Assembly (NCBI RefSeq): GCF_000255295.1
Contig: NC_017030.1
Span: forward strand, 5,580,001 to 5,644,000
DNA length: 64,000 bases
Direction of reading: 5' to 3'
Origin: Corallococcus coralloides DSM 2259
GTDB taxonomy: Bacteria > Myxococcota > Myxococcia > Myxococcales > Myxococcaceae
Each line of letters begins with the position of its first letter. Within the stretch, counting starts at the first letter, position 1. A model generated the notes under the pieces. It was not told the origin of the DNA, did no database searches, and was given only the letters and a program-made list of their open reading frames with translations. Position numbers and translations under genes: made by a program. This document shows positions 3,181 through 42,536 of the stretch, piece by piece.

Positions 3181-3181
3181 T

Positions 3182-3227
3182 TGGTCGGGGCGATAGGCGC
3201 TGAACCTGCGACCACTTGCACCCCAAG
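3182..3227 (-). repeat. attL: displaced 3' half of tRNA-Pro
   Basis: 46 bp matching 41953-41998 with 4 mismatches, including an uninterrupted 27-bp identity (3201-3227 = 41972-41998) covering the anticodon loop to the T loop. On the minus strand it reads as the tRNA 3' half ending in CCA. The mismatches fall in the T arm and spoil its stem, as expected for a displaced, non-functional copy. The sequences diverge immediately after the shared CCCCAAG, which marks the inner island boundary. Confidence 0.85.
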
Positions 3228-3343
3228 GAACCCTGGGGGCCGTTCAGCGGTTACCAGCGGCTCACAACCCTTCGTAAATACTCAAGCTTCTTCGAGCAGA
3301 GTTGTCCAGCCGTCCCATCCAGTACTCCAGGATCCCAAGATTT

Positions 3344-14084: not shown

Positions 14085-15788
14085 ATGCAAGACGCATGGC
14101 GTGCGTGCAGCGCTGGCAATGACGAAAGGGACCGCAGCAGGCGCAGTCACTTGGGCAGCGCAGACGCACCTCCCCCCCCGACACCTGCATCCCTCTCCCT
14201 CGCTGTCAGGCGTATTGCGGCGAACCTCGACCCCAAGCGCACAGGCCTGTCAGGCGCCGAGCGGCTGGAACTCTCTCTCCAGTTACTCCCCGGCCGGCTC
14301 CGCGATGTAAGGCTCGCCCACTTCCACCGCCTGATATCTGCCCTCCCCGAGGAGGAGCGGGATTGGTGGATCGGTACACTCCACACATTGTTGATGCCTA
14401 GCACGGAGCGCCGCCGCTTGGCCGCGCACTTCACGCCACCCAACCTAGCCCGGCGAGTTCTCGAACTCGCAGTGGAAGCCGGCATCGATCTGCGGACCGC
14501 TCGCATCATTGATCCCTGCGCGGGCGGCGCTGCGTTCCTCGGAACGGTGGCAGACGCACTGCGTCGTAGCCACATCGATGCAGGAAACGCGCTGAAACGG
14601 CTCAAAGGCCTGGAGATCGATGAACACCTCGCCGAACTCGCCAGAGCCATTCTTGCCCGCCGCCTAGGGAGAAACTCGGTTCCGGCCCACGTCATTTCCG
14701 TAGGCGATGCACTCTCGACGGGGATGCAAGAAACCTTCGATGCGGTACTCGCCAATCCGCCTTACGGCCGCATGCTGGGTGTCCCTAAAGAGAAGCGAAT
14801 GCGCTGGACGCATCTCGCCGACCTGGGCCACGTTAATCTTTATGCGCTCTTCGTGGGGCTCGCCCTGGATTTGCTGCGCCCAGGTGGAATTGCGGCACTG
14901 ATTCTGCCGGCGAGTTTCCTGGCGGGACCATTGTTCGGCCGCCTCCGCACACACATCCGAACCCACGCCGAAATCATCTCCGTTCACGTTCTTGACGATC
15001 GCAACGGCGTCTTCTTCGATGTCGCTCAGGACACGTGCGTCCTGCTCCTGCGGAAGGGCCAGCCGGGAAACACTCTTCGGTGGGGCGCCATTGCCGTAGA
15101 TGGAACGGCACGCACGCTGGGCACCACGGTGCTCCCGCAGGACCTTGCCGCCCCGTGGCCTATGCCCTTAAGCAACCTGCCCCATTCCCATGAGCTTGCG
15201 CATCTCTCTCATTGGGGATTTGAAGTTCGAGCCGGCTATTTTGTCTGGAACCGTGAGGGCCACCGGATGAGTAAGAACCGAGCAAGCCCTCTCGATTTCC
15301 CGCTGGTGTGGGCTGTGAATGTCAACGCTGGCAAGAAGGTACACCCTGCGGCAAGGGATGGAGCCGGTGTTGATTTCGTCCGCTTCGAAAAGCCATCCCA
15401 AGCCATCCTGCGCCAACGCGCCGTCATCGTTCAGCGTACTACCAATAATCGGCAGCGACGGCGCTTGGTGGCTGCCCCCATCGCTGCATCTGTGTTGTCC
15501 CGCTATCATGGCTTCGTCACCGAAAATCACACCCTCACCCTGATTCCGACAAACGACGGGGCGGACCTAAAACTGATATGCCAGCTACTAGGCAGCTCAT
15601 CCGTGGACGCGATGTACCGGCGCGTTGCAGGAACGGCGAGCATTTCCGTCAGAGCACTCCGCGAGCTGCCACTCCCCTGGCCGGAACACCTACGCGCTGC
15701 ACTAGAGGCAGGACTCCCGTTCGAGGACGCGGTGCGCAAGGCCTACACAATGGGCACTCGGAAGCCGCATGAGCGCACACCGGACTAG
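14085..15788 (+). CDS. DISARM-type N6-adenine DNA methyltransferase (DrmMI-like)
   Basis: A class I SAM-dependent methylase expected to methylate adenine and mark self DNA. Motif I-like IIDPCAGGAAFL (near residue 142) and the catalytic NPPYG (near 224) are clear, as is the X-region AAHFTPPNLARRVLELAV; the C-terminal half is a restriction-like target-recognition region. The conserved part begins around LSLAVRRIAANLD. I place the start at ATG 14085 (567 residues), although the frame is open back to ATG 13932; the GGGGGAGG before 14085 is rather close. It leads a tightly overlapping operon with the DrmE-like, DrmA and DrmB genes, which is the reason for assigning it to DISARM rather than to a restriction system. 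Confidence 0.8.
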   Translation: MQDAWRACSAGNDERDRSRRSHLGSADAPPPPTPASLSLAVRRIAANLDPKRTGLSGAERLELSLQLLPGRLRDVRLAHFHRLISALPEEERDWWIGTLHTLLMPSTERRRLAAHFTPPNLARRVLELAVEAGIDLRTARIIDPCAGGAAFLGTVADALRRSHIDAGNALKRLKGLEIDEHLAELARAILARRLGRNSVPAHVISVGDALSTGMQETFDAVLANPPYGRMLGVPKEKRMRWTHLADLGHVNLYALFVGLALDLLRPGGIAALILPASFLAGPLFGRLRTHIRTHAEIISVHVLDDRNGVFFDVAQDTCVLLLRKGQPGNTLRWGAIAVDGTARTLGTTVLPQDLAAPWPMPLSNLPHSHELAHLSHWGFEVRAGYFVWNREGHRMSKNRASPLDFPLVWAVNVNAGKKVHPAARDGAGVDFVRFEKPSQAILRQRAVIVQRTTNNRQRRRLVAAPIAASVLSRYHGFVTENHTLTLIPTNDGADLKLICQLLGSSSVDAMYRRVAGTASISVRALRELPLPWPEHLRAALEAGLPFEDAVRKAYTMGTRKPHERTPD

Positions 15789-18471
15789 GTTATCGATGGC
15801 TCAGCGGAAAGCGCCCCGCTCCACAATGAATGGCAGCCGCAAGCCGCCACCAACTCCGGATCCGCGACTGCCAACCGAAGAACAGCTCCGGAAGGCATTG
15901 ACCGCGCCGCTCCTCCTCCCTGCACAGGGAGGCGCTCCACGTCCCCCACCACTGATGGTCGCAGAGCTCGCTGTGGCGCTGCTGCGCGTGTACCGAACGG
16001 GCAAGTCCGAAGTAGCTTTGTACTGGCCCGAGCCTCCCGACGTGAGCGTCATCTATCCGCTTGCGTGTCTAGCACTCTTGCTTGCACCGGGGCCGCAGGA
16101 AAACGGTCAACGACGCGACCCACCCGCCCGGTTCCGCGTCTTGTATCTTCCCTGGAACACGCGCACGGGAACAGGGCTGCAGACCGTTCTCGTGGATCGG
16201 GACACCATCTACCGCGCTAATGCTGGGCACCTCTACCGATACCACCCCGGTCTCCCCACTTCGTCACCTCGAACAGATGGCTGGGAGGCGTTTCACCAAG
16301 CGCTCATCCGGGTAAAGGACCTCTCCGGAGAGGTCAAGCACAAGGGTTATAAACACCGCAAGCTTCCAGAGTACCAGCACCCTTGTCTTCTGGAGGTAGT
16401 GCCACAGTGCAGTGCGGGCAACCTGGAGGCAGAGCGACCGATCCTCCACCGCGCACGCACCCACACCATCCTAAATAAGATAAGGCCGGGTAACGTGGAT
16501 GACCCGGCATCCGCCCCCTTCATGCTGTTTGGTCTGCACCGCGACGAGACGGAAAAAACGCAACTCCGAACTGCTCTCGAACGCACTCCTCCGCCCCTGC
16601 ATGCCGTCGTCTTGGACGCAAGGCGCCGGAGTATCGATGCGCTCGGTGCCGAATGGCATGCGTCGTTAGAATTCATCCTGGCGGAACTCCGCAACATACA
16701 TGGAACCCTTCCAGTGCTTGCGGTGACAGACGAGCCGTACATCCAGCACATCCTTGCAACGACGCTGTTGCCCGCGCACCACGGCCTTCCCTGGCTTGAG
16801 TCCGTACCAACCTTTGCCCGGCACTCCATTCGCAGGCCTGGCGCGCTGTTCGAGGAGCCCCCCTCATTTGTTCCCTCCGGGGCACAGGAGATTCAGTCCT
16901 CCTCATTCGAGGGCACCACGCTCAAGTTGATAAGCCAAATCCGTACTTTGCGGAAGAAGGCCCGCGACTTGCGTGACTTCGAGGCGGACCTAGCCCTCCG
17001 CGATCTTCAACGCGCAGTGCGGCGCTGTTCCCGTCTCACGTCTGGCGTCGAAAACCTGTCGGATTTCGTCTATCAAGAGATCGATCACGATGACGACATC
17101 ACCCATGACCTGATGGCACCATACGACGTTAGAGCCCCCTTCAGGCGCATCACCAGCTCTATCGGCAGTGCTCTCCATCTGACGATGCACGAGTCCATAG
17201 GCGCATTGGATGAACGGCTCAACGCATTCAGTCAGGAGGTCCGGGAGGCTCCACCCATGGCCCGGTTGCTCCGTGATACTCTGAAAAGGACTTTCGCGAA
17301 AAGCGCCAATACGATCGTGGTCCTCCCCATTCCCATGGAGGCAGCGCACGCGCAAAAAGCCCTGATCGATGATTGGGCAATGGGCGCAGAAGTTCGCGAA
17401 CGCATTAGCGAGGCGAAACTTCAGTTCTTGGATATTCGGGGACTCCAGGCCGAGCTGGAAGCGGAGTTAGCAAGGCGAATCCAGACAGCAATCCTCGTCG
17501 CCCCGCCACCGAGCCTAGCCCTTGAAGTCATGGCACTACCGACGTTGCCCGAGCATCTCATCCTACTCGCGGACATGGATCACCTCCGGCAGATCGGCGA
17601 CGGAGCCATGCGACTAAGCAAGCTGCGCGAATTCGAGAATCTGGCGGCGCGCTTTGGCCGCTTGGGAAAAGCCGCAGCAGAGGAGATACAGCGACACCAC
17701 GGCCACCCTGCCCCACTCCACCTGGATGAGTTCGATCTGGATGATTACGTACCTTCGGCTCGCGAACGTACTATCAACCTGCTCTCCGCGGAGGACGACC
17801 GAGGCGGGGCCTTGATTGAGCTGCGTACAAACCAAGGTGTCAGGATCCACGCCCGGCCAAAAACAAAGCTAGTCCTCTTCGATCGAGAAGCGCCAGCCAA
17901 TCCCTTCTACGAGAAAGAAGCACAACAGGCGAAACAGGGCGACCAACTGTGCGTCATCGGCGAGCAATTCGAGGATATGGCCCGTACCCTCATTGACCTT
18001 CGCGTACCAGCCGACGAAGTCCGCGCCTACCACGAAGAAGTACGCCAGCGCATCAGCCTCCTCGCTGGCGGTTTATCCGAAAAGGCCCGGGCTATTTATG
18101 ATCGGATTCAGAAGACGGGACATCAACCGCCTAGCCACGACCGAATCATCGACTGGATCCGCGTGGATGCGTACTTGTCGGAAGACGTGCGGACGGTTCG
18201 GCCGCATGCGCCCTGGCGCATCGAAGACTTCCTCGCTTTTACCCGAGCCCTCGGGATATCCGAGACCAGAGCCCGGCGCTACTGGAGTACCATCCAGGGA
18301 ACCCGCTCCCGGCGGCTCTCGGTGGGGCTGCTCCGGCACGAGGCATATCGCACAGTGCTCGTCAAACCATACTCGATTGTCGTCCCCACCGAAATTGAGG
18401 CGTTGCGCGCCTTTGCTGAGCAACACGTGGATGAGATTACAGACATCATCGTGAAGGAGATTCCCTCGTGA
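15769..18471 (+). CDS. Large DISARM-associated protein, DrmE-like
   Basis: Up to 900 residues. It overlaps the methyltransferase end by 20 bp, and its own stop overlaps the GTG start of drmA (GTGA). No catalytic motif is obvious. There is a long helical middle (about 380-520, with FEADLALRDLQRAVRRC) and a C-terminal region with KQGDQLCVIGEQFEDMAR followed by helical blocks (DRIIDWIRV, RRLSVGLLRHEAYRTVLV). Size, position directly upstream of drmA, and this C-terminal pattern resemble DrmE of class 2 DISARM, but I cannot confirm homology without a profile search. Alternative starts are ATG 15796 and 15826. Probably a structural or DNA-sensing partner of the DrmA/B complex. Confidence 0.6.
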   Translation: MSAHRTRLSMAQRKAPRSTMNGSRKPPPTPDPRLPTEEQLRKALTAPLLLPAQGGAPRPPPLMVAELAVALLRVYRTGKSEVALYWPEPPDVSVIYPLACLALLLAPGPQENGQRRDPPARFRVLYLPWNTRTGTGLQTVLVDRDTIYRANAGHLYRYHPGLPTSSPRTDGWEAFHQALIRVKDLSGEVKHKGYKHRKLPEYQHPCLLEVVPQCSAGNLEAERPILHRARTHTILNKIRPGNVDDPASAPFMLFGLHRDETEKTQLRTALERTPPPLHAVVLDARRRSIDALGAEWHASLEFILAELRNIHGTLPVLAVTDEPYIQHILATTLLPAHHGLPWLESVPTFARHSIRRPGALFEEPPSFVPSGAQEIQSSSFEGTTLKLISQIRTLRKKARDLRDFEADLALRDLQRAVRRCSRLTSGVENLSDFVYQEIDHDDDITHDLMAPYDVRAPFRRITSSIGSALHLTMHESIGALDERLNAFSQEVREAPPMARLLRDTLKRTFAKSANTIVVLPIPMEAAHAQKALIDDWAMGAEVRERISEAKLQFLDIRGLQAELEAELARRIQTAILVAPPPSLALEVMALPTLPEHLILLADMDHLRQIGDGAMRLSKLREFENLAARFGRLGKAAAEEIQRHHGHPAPLHLDEFDLDDYVPSARERTINLLSAEDDRGGALIELRTNQGVRIHARPKTKLVLFDREAPANPFYEKEAQQAKQGDQLCVIGEQFEDMARTLIDLRVPADEVRAYHEEVRQRISLLAGGLSEKARAIYDRIQKTGHQPPSHDRIIDWIRVDAYLSEDVRTVRPHAPWRIEDFLAFTRALGISETRARRYWSTIQGTRSRRLSVGLLRHEAYRTVLVKPYSIVVPTEIEALRAFAEQHVDEITDIIVKEIPS

Positions 18472-21400
18472 CGCTGACCGCACCTGATTCACGGAACTAC
18501 GAGAGTCTCCAAGAAGCGAAAGAGGGAATGACGGACGCTCTCGTCAACATGACAGCGTCGCTCTGCTCTGGCGAAGGACCCGAAGGGGAGTTCATCCGCG
18601 GCCGCCGACCGGAGCGAGCATTCGTATCCGGATTCCTGCTGCCGCGTCATGGCCCTACTGGCGACGACGAAACCACCGACATCCGGATCGCTCTTATCGG
18701 ACTCGATACACAGATTGTCAAGTCCGCCTCCGGGATGTTGTTGGTGCAGCCATCCTTCTCCGTTTATGTACGAACCCTCCCATCGTGGGCCGAGCTCCAG
18801 GACCCGCGGTTCGAACTCAAACCAACCGCCCAGCTCACAAGAGAATGGGATCGAAAAATCAAGGCTGACCACTCTGAGCGATATCTAACAAAGCTGAAGG
18901 AACACGGACTCAAGGACGGTCGCGACCCGGATCTATCCAAGGAAGAGCGCGCCGAGCGGCGAGCACTCCGTAAGAAACTCCAAGCTGAAGCTTACAAAGA
19001 GACGCTTCAAGCCTTCGGCATTGAACTCAAGCAGCCCCAAGGCTCGGACAGTGGGACCGCTATAGAACCGAAGCCGGGCGCCAACGCCGAGGCGGAGCCG
19101 ATAGAACCCCCAGAGACAACCGAGGGGGACGATGCTCAATCACATGCGGAGCCGGCGACGTCACCACCAGGGGAGATGACGCCTGGCCCCATCGACGCCC
19201 GCAGCTACCCGCTCCACATGCTGCGGGACCTAGACATCCCAATGAAGTGGCGCCGGATCCTCCTGACACTGCCCACCTTCGAGTGGAACCTCACCCACGA
19301 TGAAGGGCGTGAGGAAGCGCTGGAGAAGTACGCGCAGCACTTGCACCTCGCTATCCAACAAGGCGTCCAGGCATGGCTGGATACCCCGGAGGGGCGCCGG
19401 GATGCGTGGCGCAATGTCCGGATGAAGCCTCACGATTGGCAGGCCGAAAGCTCATGGGCGGCCTTCCTTGACAAGGTGCGGCAGGAACCTCCGAAGCTGG
19501 ATGCTCTGCTGCCCGACTTTCAACGGACGCGCCTCGCCATTTCCCAACTCCCAGACTTCACGAATCCCTCCCGTCTCTCACTTCGAGTGGCGCTGGAAAA
19601 CAACAACCAGGAACTCCAGCGCCACCAAGCATCCTTCAAGTGTCCGGGCCTGTTCCAGGTGAAGCTTTCCGTCACACTTCCCTGCAACGTGCACCGACCG
19701 CTTCACTTGGACCGGGTGGAGCCTTCATACAGGTTCCGTGACCACCTGCTCTACGATGCAATGGGGCTCAATTGTGGGGCATACTCGTTTCGGCAAGGCG
19801 AGAAGATCTTGCTTGAAACAACTTGGGCGCCGCGCTGGGTCCAGCCGCGGATCGAGCCGCGCAGCATTGACGTCGAGACCTCGTTCGCAGCGCTCGCAGC
19901 TCCAGATTTCCAGGTCGAGCGGCTCCGACAAATTGCCAGCAGATACCGGGAATGGATCCTGGATCAGCAAACGCGGCTCCCTGTCGATATCGCCAAGCAA
20001 CTCACGCCCGAACACGCTGCCACGAAGCAGGAAGACTTCGCCGCCGACGTGGAAGGATGGACGCGCGAAGCAGACCTAATTGATACCGGGGTCACTGTGC
20101 TCGCGGAATCAAAAGCCGCCTACGATGCGCATCCCGGCTCACCGCAAGCAGCACCCTGGCGGGCTTTCGTGCTGATGAATCGGGCATTCTACGAACGCGA
20201 CGGCAAGAATCCTAAGCGGGGCTGGCGCTTGTTCCAGCTTGCCTTCGTGCTTACCCACGTGCCCTGCCTCGCCTCCCGTCTCCCGGAGTTCGAGCGATAT
20301 CATGATCCGGTTCGAGATGAGGATACGGCGAGCCTGCTGTACTTCCCCACCGGCGGAGGGAAGTCAGAAGCCTTCTACGGTACGCTCGTCTTCGCCCTGT
20401 TTTTGGACCGCCTGCGCGGAAAGCTCCGGGGCGTCACCGCCCTCGTGCGATATCCCTTGCGCCTGCTCACGCTACAGCAGGCACAACGCCTCATGCGACT
20501 GCTGGTGCGCGCTGAATTAGTGCGCAGGCAGGAAAAGCTGGGCGAATGGCCCTTTGAGATTGGCTTCTGGGTTGGGAGCAACAACACCCCCAACCGCGCC
20601 AGTGAAATTACCGACGTGCCGTTCGTTTCAGATTCCACGCACCCGGATGACCGTGGGCTGGATCCTGATGCTCTTCCAGCGGGTGCAGACGAGGACTTCG
20701 CACGCGCCTACACCGAAGCCCGAGCGGCTTTCAACAAGATCCCGCTCTGCCCCATCTGTAGCGAGGCGACAGGGCTGCGCCGCATCCGCGGCCATGGCGA
20801 GCACGGACTCCGAGTCGCCATTGTTTGTTTCAATGATACCTGCGGCTGGAATAAGGCCCACCCAGGCACTCCGCGAACCGAACTACCCTTCCTACTCACC
20901 GACGATACGATCTATCACCGAGCCCCTTCCGTTATCCTCGGCACGGTAGACAAACTCGCACTGATCGGACAGCGATCAGAAACCATCACGCGGGTGCTTG
21001 GAATGTTCGGTCTGGCACGCTGGATCACGCAGGACGGCCACCTGCACTCGCCTCGCAAGCGCGAGGAACTACGAAATGGGCCAAGTGCCGACAATTGCAG
21101 TCCGGTTTTCCCCTCGTATCACCAGGGACAGAGGGTGTTTCGGGATCCGTTCCCGTCACTTATCATCCAAGACGAGATGCACCTGCTCGAGGAGAGCCTC
21201 GGCACCTTTGCCGGCCTGTTCGAAACTACGCTTGAAGCAGTCCTGCGTCGAATCGAATCAGCCTATGGAGATAAACTGGAGGTAGCCCGCTCTCGGATGC
21301 GCCCAGGCGCACCTGCGCGTATGCCCAAGGTCATCGCCGCTACCGCGACGGTATCTGATCCGGCTCGCCAGCTCGAGGCGATCTATCAACGCAGCGCACT

Positions 21401-22829
21401 CCTATTTCCCAGGCCTGGCCCAGACATTCATTCTTCTTTCTTCGCCATCCCCCAGGAACCACCTCAGGCCAACACGGACCGAATAAGGATGAAGGACGAA
21501 CTCGGGCCGGCCTTGGCTCCGGAAAAAACATCGCCGTGGATGCGCCTCTACGTCTCCATCATGACCAACGGGGCAAACCATACCGTTACCACCGTCTCGG
21601 TACTCTCAGCATTTCACCTCGTTGTGACACGAATATGGCGCGGACTTATCAATCCAGCCAGCCGCCTGGAGACTGCACAGCAGTTGATCGCAGCAGTGTC
21701 CCTCGGACGCGCTGGAGCATGGCGTCGCACTGCGTTGGAAGCGCTCGTCAAGGACGGCCACTTTGATCGCCTCATCGCCCTCGTAGACTTGCATCGGGTT
21801 GCCATCACCTACGTCACCAACAAAAAGGGCGGCGACCAGGTAATAGATGCGCTCGACTTCCAAGTGCGACGCGACCATGACCGCGCAGGCTTGGACATCG
21901 GTGCCGAGTTCCCTTCGAAGCTGATCTCGGGCGGTGTGGACATGGCTGTCATCCAGGAGATTATGAAACTGGCCGAGAAACAGCCGACTCCAGGTGCGCC
22001 GTATCCGGATATCAATGAGGAGGGAACCCTACGCAACGTAGTCGCTACCTCAGCCATCTCTCACGGCGTTGACGTCGAACGCTTCAACAGCATGTTCTTC
22101 GCTGGCCTCCCGTCGAATGTAGCGGAATACATCCAGGCTTCCAGCCGGGTGGGCCGCACCCATGTGGGGTTTGTCATCCTCGTTCCTACCCCGCAGAGCC
22201 GGCGAGATCGGTACGTAGTAGAGACCCACGACATCTTCCACCGATTCCTGGAGCGGATGATCGATCCTCCTGCAGTCGAGCGCTGGGCAGCTCATGCACT
22301 CAGCCGAACACTCCCTTCCATCATCCAGGCTTGGGCAATGGTGGAGGAGGCCACCTATTTCGGTCCGCTGCCCGACAATCAAAAGCACGAGAGCCGGTCC
22401 TATGACGTGATCCGCACGCTCACCACAGGGCTTCTCGGGGCACCCGAACAATTCCGGCAGAATCTCACCAGGTTTGTGCACTCCGCCTTCGGTATGGATG
22501 GGCGCGGCCCCAATGGGCTCGGTCGCCCCTCCTATACTCAGTTCTACGCAGAGCTCATCTCGAAACGGATCCAGAATTTCCTTACCCAATTGAGGGAGGA
22601 ACCCAGTGCGGGACAACTACACGAGTTTTGGGAGGATCCCCGTAACGGTTTCATGAAGCCAATGACGTCGCTTCGCGATGTAGAAGAGTCCGGCTGGATC
22701 GTAGGCTCGCCGTTCCACCCGCCGGCCGACATCAAGACCGTCATGGACTTTGTCCGAGGCCGCCTAAAGATCGCTGCGAATCAAGCTGACGAAGGAGCTC
22801 AAGACACCGGGCTCCCGGAGAGAACATGA
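18468..22829 (+). CDS. drmA: DISARM helicase DrmA
   Basis: 1,453-residue superfamily-2 helicase. Walker A-type YFPTGGGKSEAFYG near residue 627, DEMH box SLIIQDEMHLLEESLG near 902, motif III-like IAATATVSDP, and motif VI YIQASSRVGRTH near 1,223 with the ATSAISHGVDVERFN motif V before it. A CPIC...C-x4-C zinc-ribbon-like insertion lies near 761-795. An acidic, low-complexity linker (about 195-245) separates an N-terminal domain from the rest. In DISARM, DrmA forms a complex with DrmB that loads on phage DNA. It begins with GTG inside the preceding stop and ends in ATGA overlap with drmB, so all four genes are translationally coupled. Confidence 0.85.
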   Translation: MTLTAPDSRNYESLQEAKEGMTDALVNMTASLCSGEGPEGEFIRGRRPERAFVSGFLLPRHGPTGDDETTDIRIALIGLDTQIVKSASGMLLVQPSFSVYVRTLPSWAELQDPRFELKPTAQLTREWDRKIKADHSERYLTKLKEHGLKDGRDPDLSKEERAERRALRKKLQAEAYKETLQAFGIELKQPQGSDSGTAIEPKPGANAEAEPIEPPETTEGDDAQSHAEPATSPPGEMTPGPIDARSYPLHMLRDLDIPMKWRRILLTLPTFEWNLTHDEGREEALEKYAQHLHLAIQQGVQAWLDTPEGRRDAWRNVRMKPHDWQAESSWAAFLDKVRQEPPKLDALLPDFQRTRLAISQLPDFTNPSRLSLRVALENNNQELQRHQASFKCPGLFQVKLSVTLPCNVHRPLHLDRVEPSYRFRDHLLYDAMGLNCGAYSFRQGEKILLETTWAPRWVQPRIEPRSIDVETSFAALAAPDFQVERLRQIASRYREWILDQQTRLPVDIAKQLTPEHAATKQEDFAADVEGWTREADLIDTGVTVLAESKAAYDAHPGSPQAAPWRAFVLMNRAFYERDGKNPKRGWRLFQLAFVLTHVPCLASRLPEFERYHDPVRDEDTASLLYFPTGGGKSEAFYGTLVFALFLDRLRGKLRGVTALVRYPLRLLTLQQAQRLMRLLVRAELVRRQEKLGEWPFEIGFWVGSNNTPNRASEITDVPFVSDSTHPDDRGLDPDALPAGADEDFARAYTEARAAFNKIPLCPICSEATGLRRIRGHGEHGLRVAIVCFNDTCGWNKAHPGTPRTELPFLLTDDTIYHRAPSVILGTVDKLALIGQRSETITRVLGMFGLARWITQDGHLHSPRKREELRNGPSADNCSPVFPSYHQGQRVFRDPFPSLIIQDEMHLLEESLGTFAGLFETTLEAVLRRIESAYGDKLEVARSRMRPGAPARMPKVIAATATVSDPARQLEAIYQRSALLFPRPGPDIHSSFFAIPQEPPQANTDRIRMKDELGPALAPEKTSPWMRLYVSIMTNGANHTVTTVSVLSAFHLVVTRIWRGLINPASRLETAQQLIAAVSLGRAGAWRRTALEALVKDGHFDRLIALVDLHRVAITYVTNKKGGDQVIDALDFQVRRDHDRAGLDIGAEFPSKLISGGVDMAVIQEIMKLAEKQPTPGAPYPDINEEGTLRNVVATSAISHGVDVERFNSMFFAGLPSNVAEYIQASSRVGRTHVGFVILVPTPQSRRDRYVVETHDIFHRFLERMIDPPAVERWAAHALSRTLPSIIQAWAMVEEATYFGPLPDNQKHESRSYDVIRTLTTGLLGAPEQFRQNLTRFVHSAFGMDGRGPNGLGRPSYTQFYAELISKRIQNFLTQLREEPSAGQLHEFWEDPRNGFMKPMTSLRDVEESGWIVGSPFHPPADIKTVMDFVRGRLKIAANQADEGAQDTGLPERT

Positions 22830-25063
22830 GCCGCGCATCTGACCCGAAGGATTGGAAGACTGGCAAGAAGGCTCGCGCCGCGAAGGGGATACAGCAACGC
22901 GAACGGCAGCAGGCACGGGAATCAACACCCAAGCCGCCTGTGTTCTCACGTTCACGGACGCAACTGGCCACGGTCTACGCCCCAGAGGTCCTCTTTACCT
23001 TCGAAGGAGGACGGGGAATCTGCCGATCGGTCCCCGTGGCCGCGCATTTGAGCTTGGATGCAGATGTCATCAACGCCATTCGCGACGGCATGAAGGAGTT
23101 CGTGGAGAATTGGGCCGTGCGCGCCCGAACTTGCCGGGGCAACGAAGTAAAGCAACCGCTCCGGCTCTGCCTAGATGATGCCTTCATCAAACATGGCCCC
23201 GTTGATGAGCCGATGATTGATTGGACGGACAAGTTCGCTCCTACCGACCCCAAGCAGATGGGCTACGAGCCATGGCCGTTGCTGTACTACTGCACTGTGT
23301 GCCGTCGATTGAGCGAGTTCTCATCCATCAAGGAGCAAGTCAGAAACCCACTGCCGGGCAGCTGCGGTACACATCGGTCCCAGTGGCGGCAATTGGATGT
23401 TGTGTTCGCCCATTGGTCAGGCGACGTGCAGCCGCTGAGCCCGTGGCGCCATCACTATGACGAAAACACGCGCGAGATAATCACGCTCCGCTCCTGCCAG
23501 TGCGGAGGAGCTGAATTCCGCATCATCAACAAGGCACCCACGTTCTCCGAGTGGCGATTCCAGTGCGTGACCTGTATGCGCCAACGTGATGTGACACAAT
23601 CCGACAGGGATACGTTGTCGGAGCTCAAGCCGGAGGTAGATGCGGGTAACCGCGAGTGGGTCGAGATCAACATGCTGCCGGTGTCCTATAGGGCGAACTC
23701 GCTTCACTACGTTCAAAGCGGGAGATTCGTGAAGTTAAAGGACTCGCGCTCTAGCGCTCTGCTGCGGCCGGGCTGCCAAACCGAGCTGATGAACGAGATA
23801 GCCCAATTGCACCGTATCCAGGTCCAACAACCACCGGACGAAGAGATTGAAGTCGCGCTCCGTGACTCCGGACGCGAGGATCAGTGGGAGGACTGGCGAA
23901 ACTACATCGCACGCGCCATTGAGGCCGAGAAAAACGGAAAGCAGGAGAGTGCGAAGCGAAACCGTAACCATGCAGACGAACTGTGGCGAGAGTGGATCAA
24001 GGCCCAGATCATCCCTCCGGGGAAGGTGAACAACCCGACCTTGGAGAAACAGGTGGAGGTACAGTCGCAGTGGGCGCGACGCTTCAATCCATTCCGTCTG
24101 ACGATCGAGCACGATGCGGTTCGCAAAGAGCATGTAGAAGAGAAGCAGAAACTCGGCGCGGCTATTGACGTGCTCGCTCCCGATCGCACCCTATGCGACG
24201 CAGTGGGAGAACACCTTGCGGCGTACAAAGCGGAGACCGGAGACCTGTTGCGGAAGCTAGGGATCGACACCCTCACCTTCATTAGGGGGCTCCCTATCTG
24301 CGAATACACTTTCGGATACAGCCGTGTCTCCTCTGGTCCCATCTACCATCGCGAGTACAATGGTCGCTCCATCCCGATGCCTGTGCGGCTGAAAGCGTTT
24401 CCACGAATCAATAATGGCAAGCACCCGGTCTACGTCCTCCAACAGGATAACGAGGCGCTCTATGTCCGTCTCAACGAGTCTCGTGTGCGAGCGTGGTTGG
24501 CCGCCAATGCAGTGGCAGGGACTTCCATCGACGCCAGTGAAACCCTGGGCGCCGCGTATCTTGAACAGTACCGTGATTTCGGCACCTTTCTGGACGACTA
24601 CCGCAAGCGGGATGGATCCCAGGGTGCTGCCCGTAACCTGCCAGCTTATGTTTACATGCTGTTACATACGCTGGCGCACCAGATGATCCATGCACTCGCG
24701 GAAACCTCGGGCCTGGATACAGATGGTATCGGCGAACTGATCTACCCTGCAGATCTCTCTTTCATTGTGTACCGCAAGGGCATGACCCCGGATCTCGGCC
24801 ACGTGTCAGCTATGTGGCGCAACCATCACCGGGAGTTCCTGCGACTCATTGGAGAACCAAGGCGGCTGCGCTGCGGATCAGGGAGCCTATGCGACGGGCG
24901 GGGTGGTGCTTGTCCGGCTTGCGTGATGCTACCGGACGTAGCTTGCACCGCTTCCAACCAGTTGCTTTCTCGCTCCATGGTGGCTGGAGGTAAAGCGCCT
25001 CAATGGGAAGGTGACGGAAACGCGATCGTGGTCGGATGGCTATCATCTGACCATTACGCGTAG
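22826..25063 (+). CDS. drmB: DISARM protein DrmB (DUF1998)
   Basis: 745 residues with the DUF1998 signature in the C-terminal third: YMLLHTLAHQMIHALAETSG near residue 610, then the Cys cluster RCGSGSLCDGRGGACPAC near 681-698. Further Cys pairs (YYCTVCRRLSEF, SCQCGG, FQCVTCMRQRD) suggest zinc binding in the N-terminal half. DrmB is the obligate partner of DrmA in DISARM. ATG overlaps the drmA stop. The C-terminus appears intact; an IS has inserted about 60 bp beyond the stop, exactly where drmC would be expected in classical loci. Confidence 0.85.
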   Translation: MSRASDPKDWKTGKKARAAKGIQQRERQQARESTPKPPVFSRSRTQLATVYAPEVLFTFEGGRGICRSVPVAAHLSLDADVINAIRDGMKEFVENWAVRARTCRGNEVKQPLRLCLDDAFIKHGPVDEPMIDWTDKFAPTDPKQMGYEPWPLLYYCTVCRRLSEFSSIKEQVRNPLPGSCGTHRSQWRQLDVVFAHWSGDVQPLSPWRHHYDENTREIITLRSCQCGGAEFRIINKAPTFSEWRFQCVTCMRQRDVTQSDRDTLSELKPEVDAGNREWVEINMLPVSYRANSLHYVQSGRFVKLKDSRSSALLRPGCQTELMNEIAQLHRIQVQQPPDEEIEVALRDSGREDQWEDWRNYIARAIEAEKNGKQESAKRNRNHADELWREWIKAQIIPPGKVNNPTLEKQVEVQSQWARRFNPFRLTIEHDAVRKEHVEEKQKLGAAIDVLAPDRTLCDAVGEHLAAYKAETGDLLRKLGIDTLTFIRGLPICEYTFGYSRVSSGPIYHREYNGRSIPMPVRLKAFPRINNGKHPVYVLQQDNEALYVRLNESRVRAWLAANAVAGTSIDASETLGAAYLEQYRDFGTFLDDYRKRDGSQGAARNLPAYVYMLLHTLAHQMIHALAETSGLDTDGIGELIYPADLSFIVYRKGMTPDLGHVSAMWRNHHREFLRLIGEPRRLRCGSGSLCDGRGGACPACVMLPDVACTASNQLLSRSMVAGGKAPQWEGDGNAIVVGWLSSDHYA

Positions 25064-25121
25064 AGTCGATCTCAGAATGGGCGCAGGAGGATGAGAGCGC
25101 AGGCGAGGTGAATAACAGCCT

Positions 25122-25957
25122 CTAACAAATGTCAGGGTAGAGGCGACGCAAGAGCATGACGCAGCAGCCGAGGACGAGGAAGCCGAAGTGGACATCGTCC
25201 CTGCGCTCGTCGCGGACCCGAAGCCTGCGGAGCTGGTTCTTCCAGGCCAGCGTGCGCTCCACGACCCATCGATAACGTCCGAGCCGTTCCTTGGACTCGA
25301 CGCCAGGGCGAGCGATGCGCGGAGCGATGCCACGCAGGCGAAGTCCACGCCGGTTCTTCCTGGAGGCGTAGGCCTTGTCGCCGTGAAGTTTCCCAGGCCG
25401 CCGTCGTCGCTGCCCCGAAGGCATCCTCACCGCGGGCACGGAGTCGACCAGGGGGAAGAGTTCATGGGTGTCATGGACGTTGGCGGCTGTCACCGACTCG
25501 GTGAGCGGCAGGCCGTGAGCCTCTACGAGAAGATGATGCTTGCTACCCGCCTTCGCTCTATCCGTCGGGCTTGGGCCCGTGAGGGCCCCCTTTTTGACGC
25601 CCGGACGGACGCGGAGTCGATGGAGGCGCGGGAGAAGTCCACCTTGCCGCGCAGGCCCAGTTCGTCCAGGAGCCGCTGCTGAAGGGCTTCCCACACGCCG
25701 GCCCGCGTCCACTCCTCCAGCCGGCGCCAGGCTGTCATGCCCGACAGGCCGAACTGCTTACGAGGCAGCATCTCCCAGGGGATGCCGCTGCGCAGGACGA
25801 AGACGATGGCTTCCAGCGCCGCACGGTCGTCCGCTCGGGGACGGCCCAGCTTCTTCTTGGGCCGGGGCGGAGGCAGCAGCGGGGCTACGCGCTGCCAGAA
25901 GGCATCGGGGACGAGTTCGCGCACCATGCCCCTCAAGCTGAGGATGCCCCTTGCCAA
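25122..25957 (-). CDS. IS5-family transposase, two frames joined by a -1 frameshift
   Basis: Frame A (25957 to 25523) gives the N-terminal part, ending in IDSASVRASKRG; frame B (from about 25596 to 25122) continues KKGALTGPSPTDRAKAGSKH and ends with the typical VVERTLAWKNQLRRLRVR (the catalytic Glu in VVER). The frames overlap at TCAAAAAGGGGG (25586-25597, minus strand), a classical slippery run, and a -1 slip yields the expected DDE transposase of about 270 residues. The stop codon of frame B lies on the target duplication. Apparently intact, hence potentially active. Confidence 0.8.
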
Positions 25958-25982
25958 CGACCAGCCCAGACCTGACTTTCGT
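25125..25982 (-). mobile_element. IS5-family insertion sequence, 858 bp
   Basis: Imperfect terminal inverted repeats: ACAAATGTCAGG at the left end and ACGAAAGTCAGG (reverse complement of the right end). The flanking dinucleotide TA (25123-25124 and 25983-25984) is a likely 2-bp target duplication, as in the IS427-type group. The size is right for this group. It lies in the 3' part of an older, decayed IS5 relative. Confidence 0.8.
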
Positions 25983-26555
25983 TAGGTGCTGTAAAGCCGA
26001 GGAAGTTCTCGGCTTTCACTTCGTAGCGGGTGACGAGGCGACGGAAGTGGAGCCAGGCGAAGAATCGTTCCACCTTTCAGTGTCGCTTGTAGCGCCGCAG
26101 CTCGCGCCCATTCTGCGTGGCCTTGCGCTTGCGGCCCCGGTGGTGTGGGGCAATCAGCTTAACGCCGCGCTCGTCCCAGAGTCGCTCGTCGAGTTTGTCG
26201 CTGCCGTAGGCCTTGTCTCCGATGAGCCGCTCGGGGAGTTCATCGAGGAGTCCTTCGTCGAGTGCGGCCACGAGGACTCGGACCTCGTGGGCGAAGCGCT
26301 CGCGATGCCAATGGCGACAGGAAGACCCGCGCCTTCGACAGCTGCCACGGCCTTGGTCCCCTTCCCACGTTTCGTTTTTCCGACGCAGGGCCTCCTTTCT
26401 TCGCTCCCGAGAAGGCCGGGTCCACGAAGCCCTCTTCCAGGTCGAAGCCGCCCCGCTCCCTCAAATCCTTGGCCAGTTACCGCAGCACCTTGTGGAACGT
26501 ACCGTCGTAACCGACCAACGGTCGGCGTCCTGAGCCGGGGTAGGTCCACCGGTTC
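25983..26555 (-). pseudogene. Decayed IS5-family transposase remnant (older element)
   Basis: Reading down the minus strand in three frames: WTYPGSGRRPL, GTFHKVLR, a stop, LAKDLRERGGFDLEEGFVDP, GAKKGG, VGKTKRGKGTKAVAAVEG, LIGDKAYGSDKLDERL, RYKRH, a stop, then KVERFFAWLHFRRLVTRYEV. This is a DDE transposase with an internal deletion, at least two stop codons (one where W would be expected before KVERFF) and frameshifts. Its 3' end is cut by the newer IS. Confidence 0.8.
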
Positions 26556-26581
26556 TCTCCGGCAGGCGACGACGTGGTCCG

Positions 26582-26704
26582 GATGAGTGGAAGCACCTGA
26601 TAGCGGAGTTCGAGACAAGCGGCTTGCCGCAGAATGAGTTCGTGGCCAAGCACGACTTCTCGCTGGGAACCTTCCAACACTCGCTGTACAAGGAGTCCGA
26701 GTAG
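26582..26704 (+). pseudogene. Fragment resembling an IS66-type TnpA
   Basis: A 40-codon stretch reads DEWKHLIAEFETSGLPQNEF and VAKHDFSLGTFQHSLYKESE then TAG. The W-x2-L-x2-F/W-x3-SG-x3-EF-x4-S-x2-TF pattern matches the N-terminal HTH of IS66-type TnpA proteins. No start codon, partner genes or ends are visible, so it is a remnant, adjoining the decayed IS5 relative. Confidence 0.5.
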
Positions 26705-26726
26705 TTGCACAAGGGTGTGCAGGTCG

Positions 26727-29700
26727 CTATCGGTCGCGCGCCACGCCCGGTGACGGAATACCGACAATCATTGCAATAATGCGCTGCTCCACCGGCTGGA
26801 GCAGCGGCACGGTCGAGAACGCTCTTTCCAGGTCCGGGGACTCGATGGGCTCGACCATCAGGGGGCCCTCCAATGCGTCCAGCGTCCAGAAGCTTTTCCG
26901 CTTTGTTCTATGGGCGAGCACCTGTTTGATTCGCGGGCGCAGCAATCTCAGCCACTGATCTGCCACGGAACGAAGGTCCGGAGTGGGCACCTCTGGCTGC
27001 AGGTGCTCCGGGAAGAGGTGGCTCCTCAGCTCTCCCAGCACACGCCGGCGATTCAGGTCCACGTCCTTGTTCGCGCGCGAAATCCATCCATCCATGACCC
27101 GCTCGAGCAGGGCCAGTGCGCGCTGGCGGCGTACGGGTAGGAGCCTGCGCTCGCTCTGACGAAGACGCTCCACGAAGTGCCGGATGAACTCCTCGCACTC
27201 ATCAGAGGCGTCGAGATCTCGGGTATGGGGGCCCAGCCGCTGCTTGAGCGCCTGTGCCACCTCTCCCAGGTCAAAGATGGGCTCTGCATCGCGTCCGGCG
27301 AAGAAGACCCATCGAGGCGCCCCGCGGTCGCGCCCGCCCACGACGAGAAACGCCCAGGGTTCCTCGCTTCGAACCGATCCCACACACGACACCACTTCGG
27401 CCTGACTCGTGCGAATGCTCTCGTAGAGCGCTGAGTCCACCAGCGAGCTGCGCCCCACCATGCCTCGGACTGCCCCGAAGGCATCACCGAGCTCGACAGG
27501 CTCCTGCTCCCTGCTCGCCAGTGCCCTGGACGCAAGCTCCCGCACGTCAATGGGAGTCGTGTCTTGAAGGTGCACTTCCGGCTGCAGCTCGTCTTCCGGA
27601 AGGCACAGGTTAGCTCCAATGAGGTCGGCCACCATCTCGTGGCGCTCACGGAGCAGGTCCCGCTTCTGGGGCATGAAGGCCTCCGGATCCTTCGGCCACC
27701 AGATCCGAACTGTCTTGTGGGGGCTGTCCATCCGGTCGACCCGTCCCGCGCGTTGCTCCGCAGTGCGAATGACGGTCGGCGCGTCCAGGTGGACGACGCA
27801 CGAAGCCTTCTGGAGGTTCAGTCCTTCGCTGAAGGCGTCGGAGCAGAGCGCCACCAGGGGCTGGGAACCCGCGCCAAGCCCGAACGATTGCGTTGCGCGG
27901 CGCTTCGCGGCCTTCCCTCCCGCCCCCGTCAGCAGCGTCGCACGCACCATCTTCGACTCCAGCGCGTTCTGAAAGAGCTTGAGCGTGATGACATGGGAGT
28001 CGAACGCGAGTACCTGACCATGCTCGGCGTAGAGTCTGACGAGCCTGTCGATCTTCGCTTCTTCACGGTCCCTCTGCATCCTGACCACGAGCTGCCCGAT
28101 CTGCCTGTACAGCTCAGCGTCCTCCTCACACGCACGCCGGTGGGCCTCGGGGTTCCATAACCACGAGGGCTCTACCGCCTTCGTCTTTAGCCGCTTCAAC
28201 CGCCATTCCGGCACCTGGCCAGCGAGCTCTTCGCACCTGCGCACCATGTTCCCGGTGTCGGTCTTGCCGCGGGAGTCAGTGAGGTGGGCTGCGAATTTCT
28301 CGAAAGCCGCTGAAGTCCCGTGCACGTGCTCGAAGAGGGCAGCCGACGAGGAGCGGAGGCTCTTCATCACGTGATAACGTGCCAGGGCACGGGCGCTCGC
28401 AACCACCCTCCGGACATATGCTTCTTCAGTGCTATCCCAGCCCCTTGGCAGCTCCAGCCGATTGCCGAGGCGGGAGATTCCCTTGAGCCGCTCGGCCAGA
28501 TTGGCGATTTCGCGCGCAAACTCGCTGTCACTGTCCCGGCAATCGCAAGAGTAATAGAGGGGCTCGTGCCGAGGGTAGCAGGCCGATTGGCCTGTAGGCA
28601 GTCGATACGCCGAGATCTGGCTCTCGGCGATGGCATTGAGTTCGGCGCGGGTCCTCCGAACGCTGAACCTCCGGATCTCCTCTCGTAGCCTTTTCAGGTG
28701 CTCTGGATTCCGTTTCGAGGCATCGCGTGTGCCGCGCCTGAGCTGCCCCAGGACATCAAGGCAGGACTGAGGCAGGTTGTCCGCCCCCAGAAGCTCCACA
28801 AGCGCGAGCAGGTCAGATGCGCCCTTGTTGATGGGAGTCGCTGTGAAGAGGAGCGCATTGTCCGCGTAGTGGGAGACGATGCGCCGAGTGCGGTCGGACC
28901 AGTTCAGGAAGTTATGCGCCTCGTCTACCGCGAGGATCTCGATGTCCGAGATGGCCGTCGTGAGCAACGCATGGCGTGAAGCAGTGGAGTTGCTGAGCGG
29001 GCCATGCGAGTGGACCTGAAAAGGGTGTGCAGTCTCCTGGAGCTGCTTCTCCCACAACTCCACGACCTGAGGCGGGGTAACGATCATGGTCGCGGGCCGG
29101 CTCTGGCCCATACGCAGCTGCCGGTCGAAGGCGCCCCGGATCAACCACGCTCCCATGCGCGTCTTTCCCGAGCCCGTGGCGTCGGAGACCAGGACGCTCC
29201 CGACATTCTCAAGGATCCACAGGGCCTGGGAGATGCCCTGACGCTGGTGCGGCCAAAGCGGGGGAGCGAGCTGGTCGAGCAGGTCCGGAGGTACGTACTT
29301 CTTCGCCCACTCCCCCTCAAGGATCGCGGCACAGCCGCGTGCGAGTGCTTCCTGCCACGTCACCTGTCGCAGCAGGGCATCGAGGAGCGAGAAGAAGTCA
29401 TCCTTGTAATCCCTACCCTGCAGCCAGATGCCTTCGGCGAGTTGCTGGGCCTCGCGGTATCTTCGCTTCTCCTGATTCCCGAAGCGGGCGTTGGCTTCTG
29501 ACTGCTTCTTGAGTCCCTGGGCGGTGAAGTTGCTCGAACCGAGCGTCACGGCCTGCTGGGACAGGTAGATCTTCGCGTGGACGGGACGCCGCGCCTGGGC
29601 AAGGCGGACCTCGACCTTCCCATGTTCGACCAGCTCCCGCACCCGGATAAGGGCTCCCGAGAGCGTGACGGAGATCCCTCTCGACAGCCAGTAGTCCCGG

Positions 29701-30509
29701 ACCTCATCCGCGATGCTCTGGTCGTGGCTCCGGTAAACGGAGCGCTGGGATTCGAAGGGTTCCCAGCCAAACAGAAGGCGGACCTTCTCCTCGCCCGAGG
29801 TGAATGACCGCTTCGCGAGGAAGTCGATGACCCGTTCGAGCGACGCATACCCGACGATGAGGAGCACCTGCTCGGAGGCTGCCAGGTCCTGTTTCACGAT
29901 CTCATCGACCGAGGCGCCTCCTTCGTTATGGGGGAATCGGGCGGCATGTGGCCACGTAACGGATGCCGCATCTGGCGTGGAGGGTGGAGCATAATCAACC
30001 AGGCTGAGCTGGGCTGGGTCTGCCTGCCTCACCCTCTTGCGGCCCGGCGTCCCTGGGAGAAAAGGTGCGGGGTCGTTCAGCCACTTGAGCCACCGGCGCA
30101 GGACCGTGGCCTTTCGCCAGCGAATGGGCCCTGAGAGCGCCGCACACTCCGAGAGGAAGGTCTCGACCTGCTCCAGATCGAGGCTCCTGATGTCCGCTAC
30201 GCCCTGCCATTCGAGCCAGGTCTGACCACATTGGCTTCGCGCAAAGACGGCGGAGAGCTCGCGACGGACCTCTCGTGGGTCAGCGCGCACCACGTTCCTG
30301 CCAGTCGCGGTCACTGCATCCGAATCATCAATCAGGCCCAAGATGCGGCAGGCCTTACGGTAGGACGGAATGGCCTGTATCTGATGAAAGCCGGGCGCAC
30401 TCCAGTCATTGTACCGGGCGTAGTGGCGCAGCAGGGCCATCAGTCGTGGCAGAGAATTTGCCTGAGGGATGTCGTCGCTGGAGAGCTGTTTCGTCCTGCG
30501 CCTGCGCAT
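26727..30509 (-). CDS. Phospholipase-D-like domain fused to SNF2-type helicase (DISARM DrmC/DrmD-like candidate)
   Basis: About 1,260 residues from ATG 30509 (MRRRRTKQLS); the frame is open to 30695 but the extra part is not protein-like. An N-terminal helical domain is followed by a PLD-type site, VHAKIYLS near residue 310 and GSSNFTAQGL near 325. A superfamily-2/SNF2 ATPase comes next: Walker A SDATGSGKTRMG near 442, DEAH box AVDEAHNFLNW near 528, LLFTATPIN, and motif V-VI CSDAFSEGLNLQ and EQRAGRVDRMDSPHK near 918. In class 1 DISARM, PLD (DrmC) and SNF2 helicase (DrmD) are separate proteins; this single chain carries both. It is antisense to the drm operon and separated from it by IS debris. 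A stand-alone PLD-helicase defence protein is the alternative. Confidence 0.75.
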   Translation of the reverse strand: MRRRRTKQLSSDDIPQANSLPRLMALLRHYARYNDWSAPGFHQIQAIPSYRKACRILGLIDDSDAVTATGRNVVRADPREVRRELSAVFARSQCGQTWLEWQGVADIRSLDLEQVETFLSECAALSGPIRWRKATVLRRWLKWLNDPAPFLPGTPGRKRVRQADPAQLSLVDYAPPSTPDAASVTWPHAARFPHNEGGASVDEIVKQDLAASEQVLLIVGYASLERVIDFLAKRSFTSGEEKVRLLFGWEPFESQRSVYRSHDQSIADEVRDYWLSRGISVTLSGALIRVRELVEHGKVEVRLAQARRPVHAKIYLSQQAVTLGSSNFTAQGLKKQSEANARFGNQEKRRYREAQQLAEGIWLQGRDYKDDFFSLLDALLRQVTWQEALARGCAAILEGEWAKKYVPPDLLDQLAPPLWPHQRQGISQALWILENVGSVLVSDATGSGKTRMGAWLIRGAFDRQLRMGQSRPATMIVTPPQVVELWEKQLQETAHPFQVHSHGPLSNSTASRHALLTTAISDIEILAVDEAHNFLNWSDRTRRIVSHYADNALLFTATPINKGASDLLALVELLGADNLPQSCLDVLGQLRRGTRDASKRNPEHLKRLREEIRRFSVRRTRAELNAIAESQISAYRLPTGQSACYPRHEPLYYSCDCRDSDSEFAREIANLAERLKGISRLGNRLELPRGWDSTEEAYVRRVVASARALARYHVMKSLRSSSAALFEHVHGTSAAFEKFAAHLTDSRGKTDTGNMVRRCEELAGQVPEWRLKRLKTKAVEPSWLWNPEAHRRACEEDAELYRQIGQLVVRMQRDREEAKIDRLVRLYAEHGQVLAFDSHVITLKLFQNALESKMVRATLLTGAGGKAAKRRATQSFGLGAGSQPLVALCSDAFSEGLNLQKASCVVHLDAPTVIRTAEQRAGRVDRMDSPHKTVRIWWPKDPEAFMPQKRDLLRERHEMVADLIGANLCLPEDELQPEVHLQDTTPIDVRELASRALASREQEPVELGDAFGAVRGMVGRSSLVDSALYESIRTSQAEVVSCVGSVRSEEPWAFLVVGGRDRGAPRWVFFAGRDAEPIFDLGEVAQALKQRLGPHTRDLDASDECEEFIRHFVERLRQSERRLLPVRRQRALALLERVMDGWISRANKDVDLNRRRVLGELRSHLFPEHLQPEVPTPDLRSVADQWLRLLRPRIKQVLAHRTKRKSFWTLDALEGPLMVEPIESPDLERAFSTVPLLQPVEQRIIAMIVGIPSPGVARDR

Positions 30510-40552: not shown

Positions 40553-40637
40553 GGCCCGAGCGGCCGGCGGGTGGTGCCCTTCTCCGCCGGCAACAATGGC
40601 CTGGACCTTCAAGGTAACACTCCATAGGCATTACCCC

Positions 40638-42536
<1,899 letters not shown>

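What the first reader, a model, noticed from the sequence alone, without database searches (positions are those of the whole stretch)
14085..30509. Hybrid DISARM-like locus: adenine methylase + DrmE-like + DrmA + DrmB, with a PLD-SNF2 fusion across an IS scar
Seen: four plus-strand genes with 20-, 4- and 4-bp overlaps encode an NPPY adenine methylase, a 900-residue protein, a DEMH helicase and a DUF1998 protein. After IS debris, an antisense gene fuses a PLD site to an SNF2-type helicase. Known: class 1 DISARM has drmD (SNF2), drmMI (adenine), drmA, drmB, drmC (PLD); class 2 has drmE, drmA, drmB, drmC and a cytosine methylase. Inference: this locus mixes class 1 methylase and SNF2 activity with a class 2 DrmE-like gene, and PLD plus SNF2 are on one chain. 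It could be a new DISARM class.
Basis: partly seen in the sequence, partly recalled or inferred. Interest (0 to 1): 0.85.

Follow-up and report, generated by a model that had tools for sequence, protein, structure and literature searches.

The report
Third DISARM-like layout with pseudo-helicase subunit

Summary
The four overlapping plus-strand genes are real: adenine-type methylase, 900-residue protein X, DrmA-type helicase, DrmB-type protein. Searches with X found the same order in alphaproteobacteria. Of 25 loci held (three are duplicates), 24 have DrmA and DrmB right behind X. A small PLD gene (DrmC-like by profile in the one tested) follows drmB in 18 of 22 judgeable loci. In none of the 25 did I find the PLD-SNF2 gene in the stretch held. 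In the window that gene is antisense, beyond an IS, and differs in codon composition, so the hybrid reading is not supported. X matches no DrmE model, but my DrmE control failed too, so kinship is open. X is predicted to fold like an SF2 helicase (Hef, FANCM, RIG-I, XPF), and 0 of 17 X proteins have a Walker A motif. DrmA of this layout splits from the few class 1 and 2 DrmA sampled with full support. I read it as a third DISARM-like architecture (methylase, X, DrmA, DrmB, usually DrmC), here without DrmC, riding on an integrative element at tRNA-Pro. No function was tested. A preprint already mentions many uncharacterised DISARM-like classes, so this is a new variant of a known kind.

The parts
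14085..15788 (+). N6-adenine-type DNA methyltransferase (567 aa), first gene of the cassette
   Evidence: Pfam N6_Mtase and Eco57I; PADLOC MTase_II PDLC03338 326 bits; NPPY; same place in 23 of 25 relatives
15769..18471 (+). Protein X (900 aa): predicted two-RecA SF2-helicase fold with degenerate motifs; marker of this layout
   Evidence: no family match at E up to 0.01; AF2 models and PDB fold matches; motif checks on 17 sequences
18468..22829 (+). DrmA-type (YprA-family) helicase, 1453 aa, motor motifs intact
   Evidence: NF038325 386 bits (cut-off 950), PADLOC DrmA 315 bits; solved DrmA 7s9v_A; tree
22826..25063 (+). DrmB-type protein, 745 aa, C-terminal four-cysteine cluster
   Evidence: PADLOC DrmB 53 bits, NF038324 46 bits (cut-off 240); solved DrmB 7s9v_B; motif
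25115..25992 (-). IS4/5-type insertion sequence, 878 bp, transposase in two overlapping frames; sits 51 bp behind drmB, where most relatives have a PLD gene
   Evidence: Pfam DDE_Tnp_1 and DUF4096; inverted ends
26727..30509 (-). Neighbour judged not part of the cassette: N-terminal domain + PLD + SNF2 helicase (1260 aa)
   Evidence: Pfam PLDc_2, SNF2, Helicase_C; not found with related cassettes; different third-position GC
3134..3230 (.). Partial tRNA-Pro copy, likely attachment site at the left end of the element
   Evidence: 81% identical to 41905-42001 and 92-94% to the tRNA-Pro region of three genus members
40596..42536 (+). ORF with phage-type tyrosine integrase next to tRNA-Pro (the ORF as listed runs past the tRNA)
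   Evidence: Pfam Phage_integrase
41953..42029 (-). tRNA-Pro (ggg), likely insertion site; right end of the element
   Evidence: ARAGORN; matches to genus members begin at 41874-41939

Best explanation
This is a DISARM-related anti-phage cassette of a third architecture: adenine methylase, protein X, DrmA, DrmB and, in most relatives, DrmC. It arrived as cargo of an integrative element at tRNA-Pro. Proposed working (inferred): the methylase marks host DNA. DrmA-DrmB load on unmarked phage DNA with single-stranded ends and translocate, blocking replication. X, a helicase-shaped protein without a recognisable ATP-binding motif, holds or recognises branched or end DNA and guides DrmAB, as XPF, Hef and FANCM folds do for forks (recalled). 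DrmC, where present, cuts. Here DrmC is missing. Shown by computation: gene order, DrmA/DrmB kinship, predicted fold of X, absent motifs, island setting. Inferred: defence activity, self-marking, the role of X.
For: X sits directly before DrmA and DrmB in 24 of 25 loci held (the 25th, L022, is cut by its contig end), with the methylase directly before X in 23 and behind the PLD gene in 1. Duplicates: L023 repeats L002, and L019 and L011 have the same X and DrmA proteins as L004 and L010. Polaromonas (beta) and Afipia plasmids, found through DrmA, show the same five-gene order, with the protein at the X position matching the X profile at E 6e-40 and 4e-11. DrmA of 13 rows of this layout splits from 5 class 1/2 or DrmE-linked rows with 100/100 support. 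DrmA and DrmB match the solved DrmAB complex. The PLD protein of one relative (L002) matches 22 PADLOC families, 21 of them DrmC. X models match SF2 helicases: FANCM E 7.8e-7, RIG-I and Hef Z 10.8. 0 of 17 X proteins contain GxxxxGK[ST] or GxGK[ST] anywhere. DrmC is reported dispensable and often missing in DISARM (PMC9142583, passages).
Against: No functional test exists. DrmA and DrmB score below the NCBI cut-offs (386 of 950; 46 of 240). Both X models are of moderate confidence (pLDDT 62.6 and 75.4), and a best Z of 12.7 and 10.8 is only modestly above the tool's stated background (7 to 8 for models without a clear match, 14 for five mostly helical ones). Whole-chain superpositions have high rmsd. 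In a Rubrobacter locus with the same order, the protein at the X position does not match X. Four of 22 judgeable loci lack the PLD gene. One relative (L006) has no matching methylase beside the cassette, and frames are broken in L009, L013 (methylase) and L024.
Confidence: 0.7

Rival explanations
1. X is a very divergent DrmE, and the cassette is class 2 DISARM whose cytosine methylase was replaced by an adenine methylase.
For: X holds the drmE position directly before drmA, as in L031, and with one gene between them in L078; in Rhizobium johnstonii the methylase comes last, which is the class 2 order as I recall it; DrmE-family proteins are themselves barely alike: two that pass the family cut-off give hhalign probability 0.4% as single sequences.
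Against: 0 of 20 X proteins match a DrmE model in NCBIfam or PADLOC at E up to 10, with the caveat that HMMER's filters drop most matches above about 0.1; NF038316 finds nothing in the window's genome; DrmA of this layout does not group with the three DrmE-linked rows.
Confidence: 0.3
2. One reading: a hybrid DISARM in which PLD and SNF2 functions sit on one chain encoded across the IS.
For: The gene is next door and has intact helicase motifs and a PLD motif; DrmC is missing here, and DrmAB has been suggested to recruit other PLD nucleases (PMC9142583, passage).
Against: Found in 0 of 25 related stretches; 14 of 15 cassette-bearing genomes searched have no match, the other only a 149-residue match at 29% identity; of its relatives in the window's phylum I read 5 contexts, none with the cassette, but one is a 4-kb contig and two match only part of the protein; opposite strand; third-position GC 0.774 against 0.667-0.680 in the cassette.
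Confidence: 0.05
3. A dead remnant: the cassette lost drmC, perhaps to the IS, and no longer works.
For: No drmC trace in the window; IS 51 bp behind drmB; broken cassettes exist elsewhere (L004, L009, L024).
Against: All four remaining frames are intact and full length against relatives; DrmC is reported dispensable in DISARM (PMC9142583, passages); 4 of 22 judgeable relatives also lack a PLD gene there.
Confidence: 0.2

Closest known systems
DISARM type II (class 2): DrmE, DrmA, DrmB, DrmC, DrmMII
   Same: Separate DrmA and DrmB genes, PLD gene after drmB in most relatives, a large protein directly before drmA, DrmA scoring better against the short DrmA model (386 bits) than the long one (204.5 bits)
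   Different: Adenine-type instead of cytosine methylase; X matches no DrmE model; DrmA forms its own branch among the rows sampled
DISARM type I (class 1): DrmD, DrmMI, DrmA, DrmB, DrmC
   Same: DrmA, DrmB, an adenine methylase, DrmC-like gene in most relatives
   Different: No DrmD in the cassette; 567-aa methylase instead of the 1342- and 1365-aa ones in two loci that I took as class 1 (Trichormus, Nocardioides); X present
ARMADA, BRIGADE, TALON, Druantia (YprA-family systems, PMC12458937)
   Same: YprA-family helicase at the core; ARMADA and Druantia also ride on islands at tRNA genes
   Different: Those mostly keep helicase and DUF1998 part in one gene, and X is not described for them in what I read; here the two parts are split as in DISARM
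Hef, FANCM, XPF, RIG-I (SF2 helicase folds)
   Same: Predicted fold of X residues about 60-620
   Different: X has no Walker A motif in 17 of 17 sequences; the C-terminal third was not tested by itself

Membership tests
DISARM (core) | DrmA helicase | tested here: met
   PADLOC DrmA 315 bits, NF038325 386 bits but below its 950 cut-off; solved DrmA E 1.1e-70 with the profile of alignment A3
DISARM (core) | DrmB (DUF1998) as a separate gene | tested here: met
   Weak in sequence: 53 bits PADLOC, 46 bits NF038324 below its 240 cut-off, no Pfam match; solved DrmB E 1.6e-6 with profile A4; hhalign 96.6% and 95.6% with two DrmB
DISARM (core) | DrmC PLD nuclease | tested here: not met
   None found in the window; PLD gene after drmB in 18 of 22 judgeable relatives. 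Reported dispensable and often missing (PMC9142583, passages)
DISARM type I | DrmD SNF2 helicase | tested here: not met
   None of the four cassette genes matches DrmD; the nearby antisense gene scores 56 of 610 bits on NF038317
DISARM type I | DrmMI adenine methylase | tested here: inconclusive
   Adenine-type motif, but no DrmMI among the best 25 of 42 PADLOC matches shown; best is MTase_II 326 bits
DISARM type II | DrmE | tested here: inconclusive
   0 of 20 X proteins match DrmE models; the profile comparison's positive control also failed
DISARM type II | DrmMII cytosine methylase | tested here: not met
   Methylase is N6-type with no cytosine-methylase match in Pfam or NCBIfam
[quoted passage not shown]
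   DrmA and DrmB are separate genes; definition from PMC12458937, which adds that such splits occur sporadically in other lineages
DISARM | Protection against phage | not testable with these tools
   Needs plaque assays

The most novel reading that the evidence does not exclude
A third DISARM class in which a motor-dead, Hef/FANCM/XPF-shaped SF2 protein takes the place of DrmD and DrmE as the DNA-structure sensor that loads DrmAB, found in alpha- and betaproteobacteria, in the window's host, and with a diverged partner perhaps in Actinomycetota (Rubrobacter).
Probability: 0.35. Interest if true: 0.62.

Novelty: new variant of a known kind. Interest (0 to 1): 0.5.

Why it matters
It would add a DISARM architecture that the models searched here would miss (DrmA and DrmB score under the NCBI cut-offs and X has no model), and it gives a concrete candidate, a helicase-shaped protein without a motor, for the open question of how DrmAB is steered to phage DNA. 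The loci listed here would let annotation models be extended at once.

Tried and rejected
PLD-SNF2 as a component: rejected. A drmC remnant behind drmB: the hits of tblastn and of the PLD profile are at chance level (best E 0.13 and 0.52) and none lies between drmB and the antisense gene. X as DrmE by profile: A5 against two DrmE (probability 0.4%) and further pairs in scripts (highest probability 6%), nothing; the DrmE-DrmE control also fails, so I do not count this as evidence. DrmE relatives in plasmids, phages and viral contigs: no relative found (plasmids 55, 101; viral contigs 57, 102; phages 103, one of the two DrmE queries only). X in viral contigs and phages: none. Solved-structure sequence search with X: one match at E 0.67, nothing useful. 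Structure searches list no DISARM subunit among the rows shown for X; that is no test of it. The C-terminal third of X was not tested by itself. Literature for a named third class: searches; in the listings none names this layout; most papers of subscription journals are not in the library.

Full report
What is there. The methylase most likely starts at 14085. The four cassette genes share third-position GC of 0.667-0.680, against 0.774 for the antisense PLD-SNF2 gene and 0.968 for a neighbouring core gene with phenylalanyl-tRNA-synthetase beta-chain domains. I infer that the four came together and that the antisense gene has another history.

Families. DrmA is clear. DrmB is weak in sequence but keeps a four-cysteine cluster and matches solved DrmB. 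The methylase is N6-type. X matches nothing in PADLOC, Pfam or NCBIfam at E up to 0.01. In scans of 20 X proteins at E up to 10, the few matches were all above E 0.01 and name no relevant family.

Relatives. tblastn of X finds 5 plasmid records, all alphaproteobacterial (read). One scan of genome contigs finds 20 loci, all alphaproteobacterial by my reading of the titles. Of these 25 loci, L023 is the same record as L002, and L019 and L011 have the same X and DrmA as L004 and L010. Profiles over ORFs of 80 aa or more, E up to 1e-3, give: X in 25 of 25 (by construction); DrmA and DrmB behind it in 24 of 25, the other (L022) being cut by the contig end; a strong methylase match in 24 of 25 (directly before X in 23, behind the PLD gene in L005), L006 having only a weak one on the other strand; a PLD gene directly after drmB in 18 of 22 judgeable loci (17 of 20 without duplicates). 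Not judgeable: L004 (IS66 genes inside drmB), L019 (drmB cut, contig end near) and L022 (contig end). Without a PLD gene: L010, L011, L017, L021; L010 and L011 carry a DprA-like gene there. L009, L013 (methylase) and L024 contain broken or split frames. The PLD-SNF2 gene is in 0 of the 25 stretches. By whole genome, I searched 15 of the 20 genome loci's genomes; 14 have no match and one has a 149-residue match.

Rarity. X occurs in 1 of 98 relatives searched (the window's own genome), in 1 of 195 genomes of the phylum (again the own genome) and in 1 of 190 genomes of an alphaproteobacterial sample (the centre itself). No tool names the host; genome size and GC suggest a myxobacterium (my inference).

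Wider spread. tblastn with DrmA gives 85 plasmid records, 45 listed. Beyond those already held I read five. Polaromonas and Afipia have methylase, X (E 6e-40 and 4e-11), DrmA, DrmB, PLD. Rubrobacter has a similar order, but its 839-aa protein at the X position does not match X (E 0.47). Trichormus and Nocardioides have large methylases and annotated drmA; I used them as class 1 examples (Nocardioides has drmD annotated; for Trichormus no drmD was in the stretch, so its label is mine). In a DrmA tree of 18 rows, 13 rows of this layout (Rubrobacter included) separate from the 5 class 1/2 or DrmE-linked rows with 100/100 support. Rubrobacter is a very long branch, the two class 1 rows are long branches that meet, and the root is at the midpoint only.

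X. Two AlphaFold2 models, one of the window protein (pLDDT 62.6) and one of a relative with the same 17 sequences (pLDDT 75.4), both match SF2 helicases best: Hef, RIG-I, LGP2, FANCM, XPF. The best Z is 12.7 (rmsd 6.4, 214 aligned, model residues 370-624) for the first and 10.8 (rmsd 5.3, 281 aligned) for the second, modestly above the tool's background. None of the 17 sequences contains GxxxxGK[ST] or GxGK[ST]; a lone GKS occurs in 4 of 17 at unlike places. Where a DExH box would be expected by my reading, the alignment has LDLTR or similar. I infer a helicase-shaped protein without a motor. Whether X is a remote DrmE is open: the models do not match it, but two proteins that pass the DrmE cut-off do not match each other in my test either.

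Antisense gene. It has an N-terminal domain (about residues 69-215 of the longest ORF, from the matches), a PLD domain and an SNF2 helicase. In the phylum, 147 of 195 genomes have some match, most of them to the helicase part only; relatives of about 24% identity covering N-terminal, PLD and helicase parts occur in G029, G131 and G050. None of the five contexts that I read has the cassette, one of them being a 4-kb contig. It is plausibly a separate defence gene (weak PADLOC matches: DpdE, DrmD, HKD+Snf2).

Setting. In 15 of 15 other genus members searched, matches to the query begin between window 41874 and 41939, at tRNA-Pro, beside a tyrosine integrase; in G001 the match is only 685 bases, and short scattered matches lie inside the element. 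In G013 the left core flank (4.0 kb before the window's start) and the tRNA-Pro region lie 115 bp apart, so about 46 kb is inserted here. G006 has 4.1 kb of its own at that place, and G010 showed no matching left flank in the stretch taken. A partial tRNA-Pro copy at 3134-3230 (81% to the right copy) suggests two elements in tandem, the second of about 38.8 kb holding the cassette. The IS behind drmB is 878 bp with 18-of-22 inverted ends; a 3-bp TAA target repeat is possible but too short to prove.

How it may work. By analogy with DISARM (DrmAB binds single-stranded 5'-overhang DNA, its ATPase is limited by methylation, and DrmC is dispensable: PMC9142583, passages), the methylase would mark self, DrmAB would attack unmarked phage DNA, and X would sense DNA structure. 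This is inference.

Known or new. PADLOC type I needs DrmA, DrmB, DrmC, DrmD, DrmMI; type II needs DrmA, DrmB, DrmC, DrmE, DrmMII (PMC9252829, passages). The window and its relatives fit neither as tested. The YprA preprint (PMC12458937: abstract, introduction, two of three parts of the results, legends and passages read) mentions many uncharacterised DISARM-like classes without describing this one in what I read. The CoCoNuT paper (PMC11090510, passages) reports DISARM-like systems beside McrBC. The Shield paper (PMC10270631, passages) reports ShdA homologues inside DISARM-like operons, a different addition. A full-text search for phrases naming a third class found no relevant paper.

Noticed in passing
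window 3134-42029: Integrative element at tRNA-Pro with a tyrosine integrase; about 46 kb inserted relative to G013, apparently two elements in tandem.
   Followed up: partly
window 38032-39966: DNA polymerase A-like gene matching the PADLOC model RTasPolA (DRT) at 3e-23.
   Followed up: no
window 7744-9684: Schlafen group 3 helicase-domain protein, PADLOC match PDC-S41 at 2e-22.
   Followed up: no
window 6366-7301: PD-(D/E)XK nuclease, PADLOC match PDC-S26 at 6e-16.
   Followed up: no
window 9906-13442: 1178-residue WD40 repeat protein on the minus strand beside the cassette.
   Followed up: no
L010 and L011, 19290-20844: A DprA-like gene (Pfam, L010) and a second gene (phosphoribosyltransferase-like by eye) follow drmB where most other loci have the PLD gene.
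   Followed up: partly
L084 3983-6502: Rubrobacter plasmid has a similar gene order with an 839-residue protein at the X position that does not match X or DrmE in my tests.
   Followed up: partly
L004 19075-22467: IS66 genes interrupt drmB in Sinorhizobium americanum plasmid A.
   Followed up: no
L005 5526-8987 and L083 16581-19552: An ATP-binding protein and an S8 peptidase gene lie side by side near the cassette in both Rhizobium johnstonii and Afipia plasmids.
   Followed up: no
L035, L045, L047: The N-terminal domain of the PLD-SNF2 gene occurs in shorter open frames (324-458 aa) elsewhere in the phylum.
   Followed up: no
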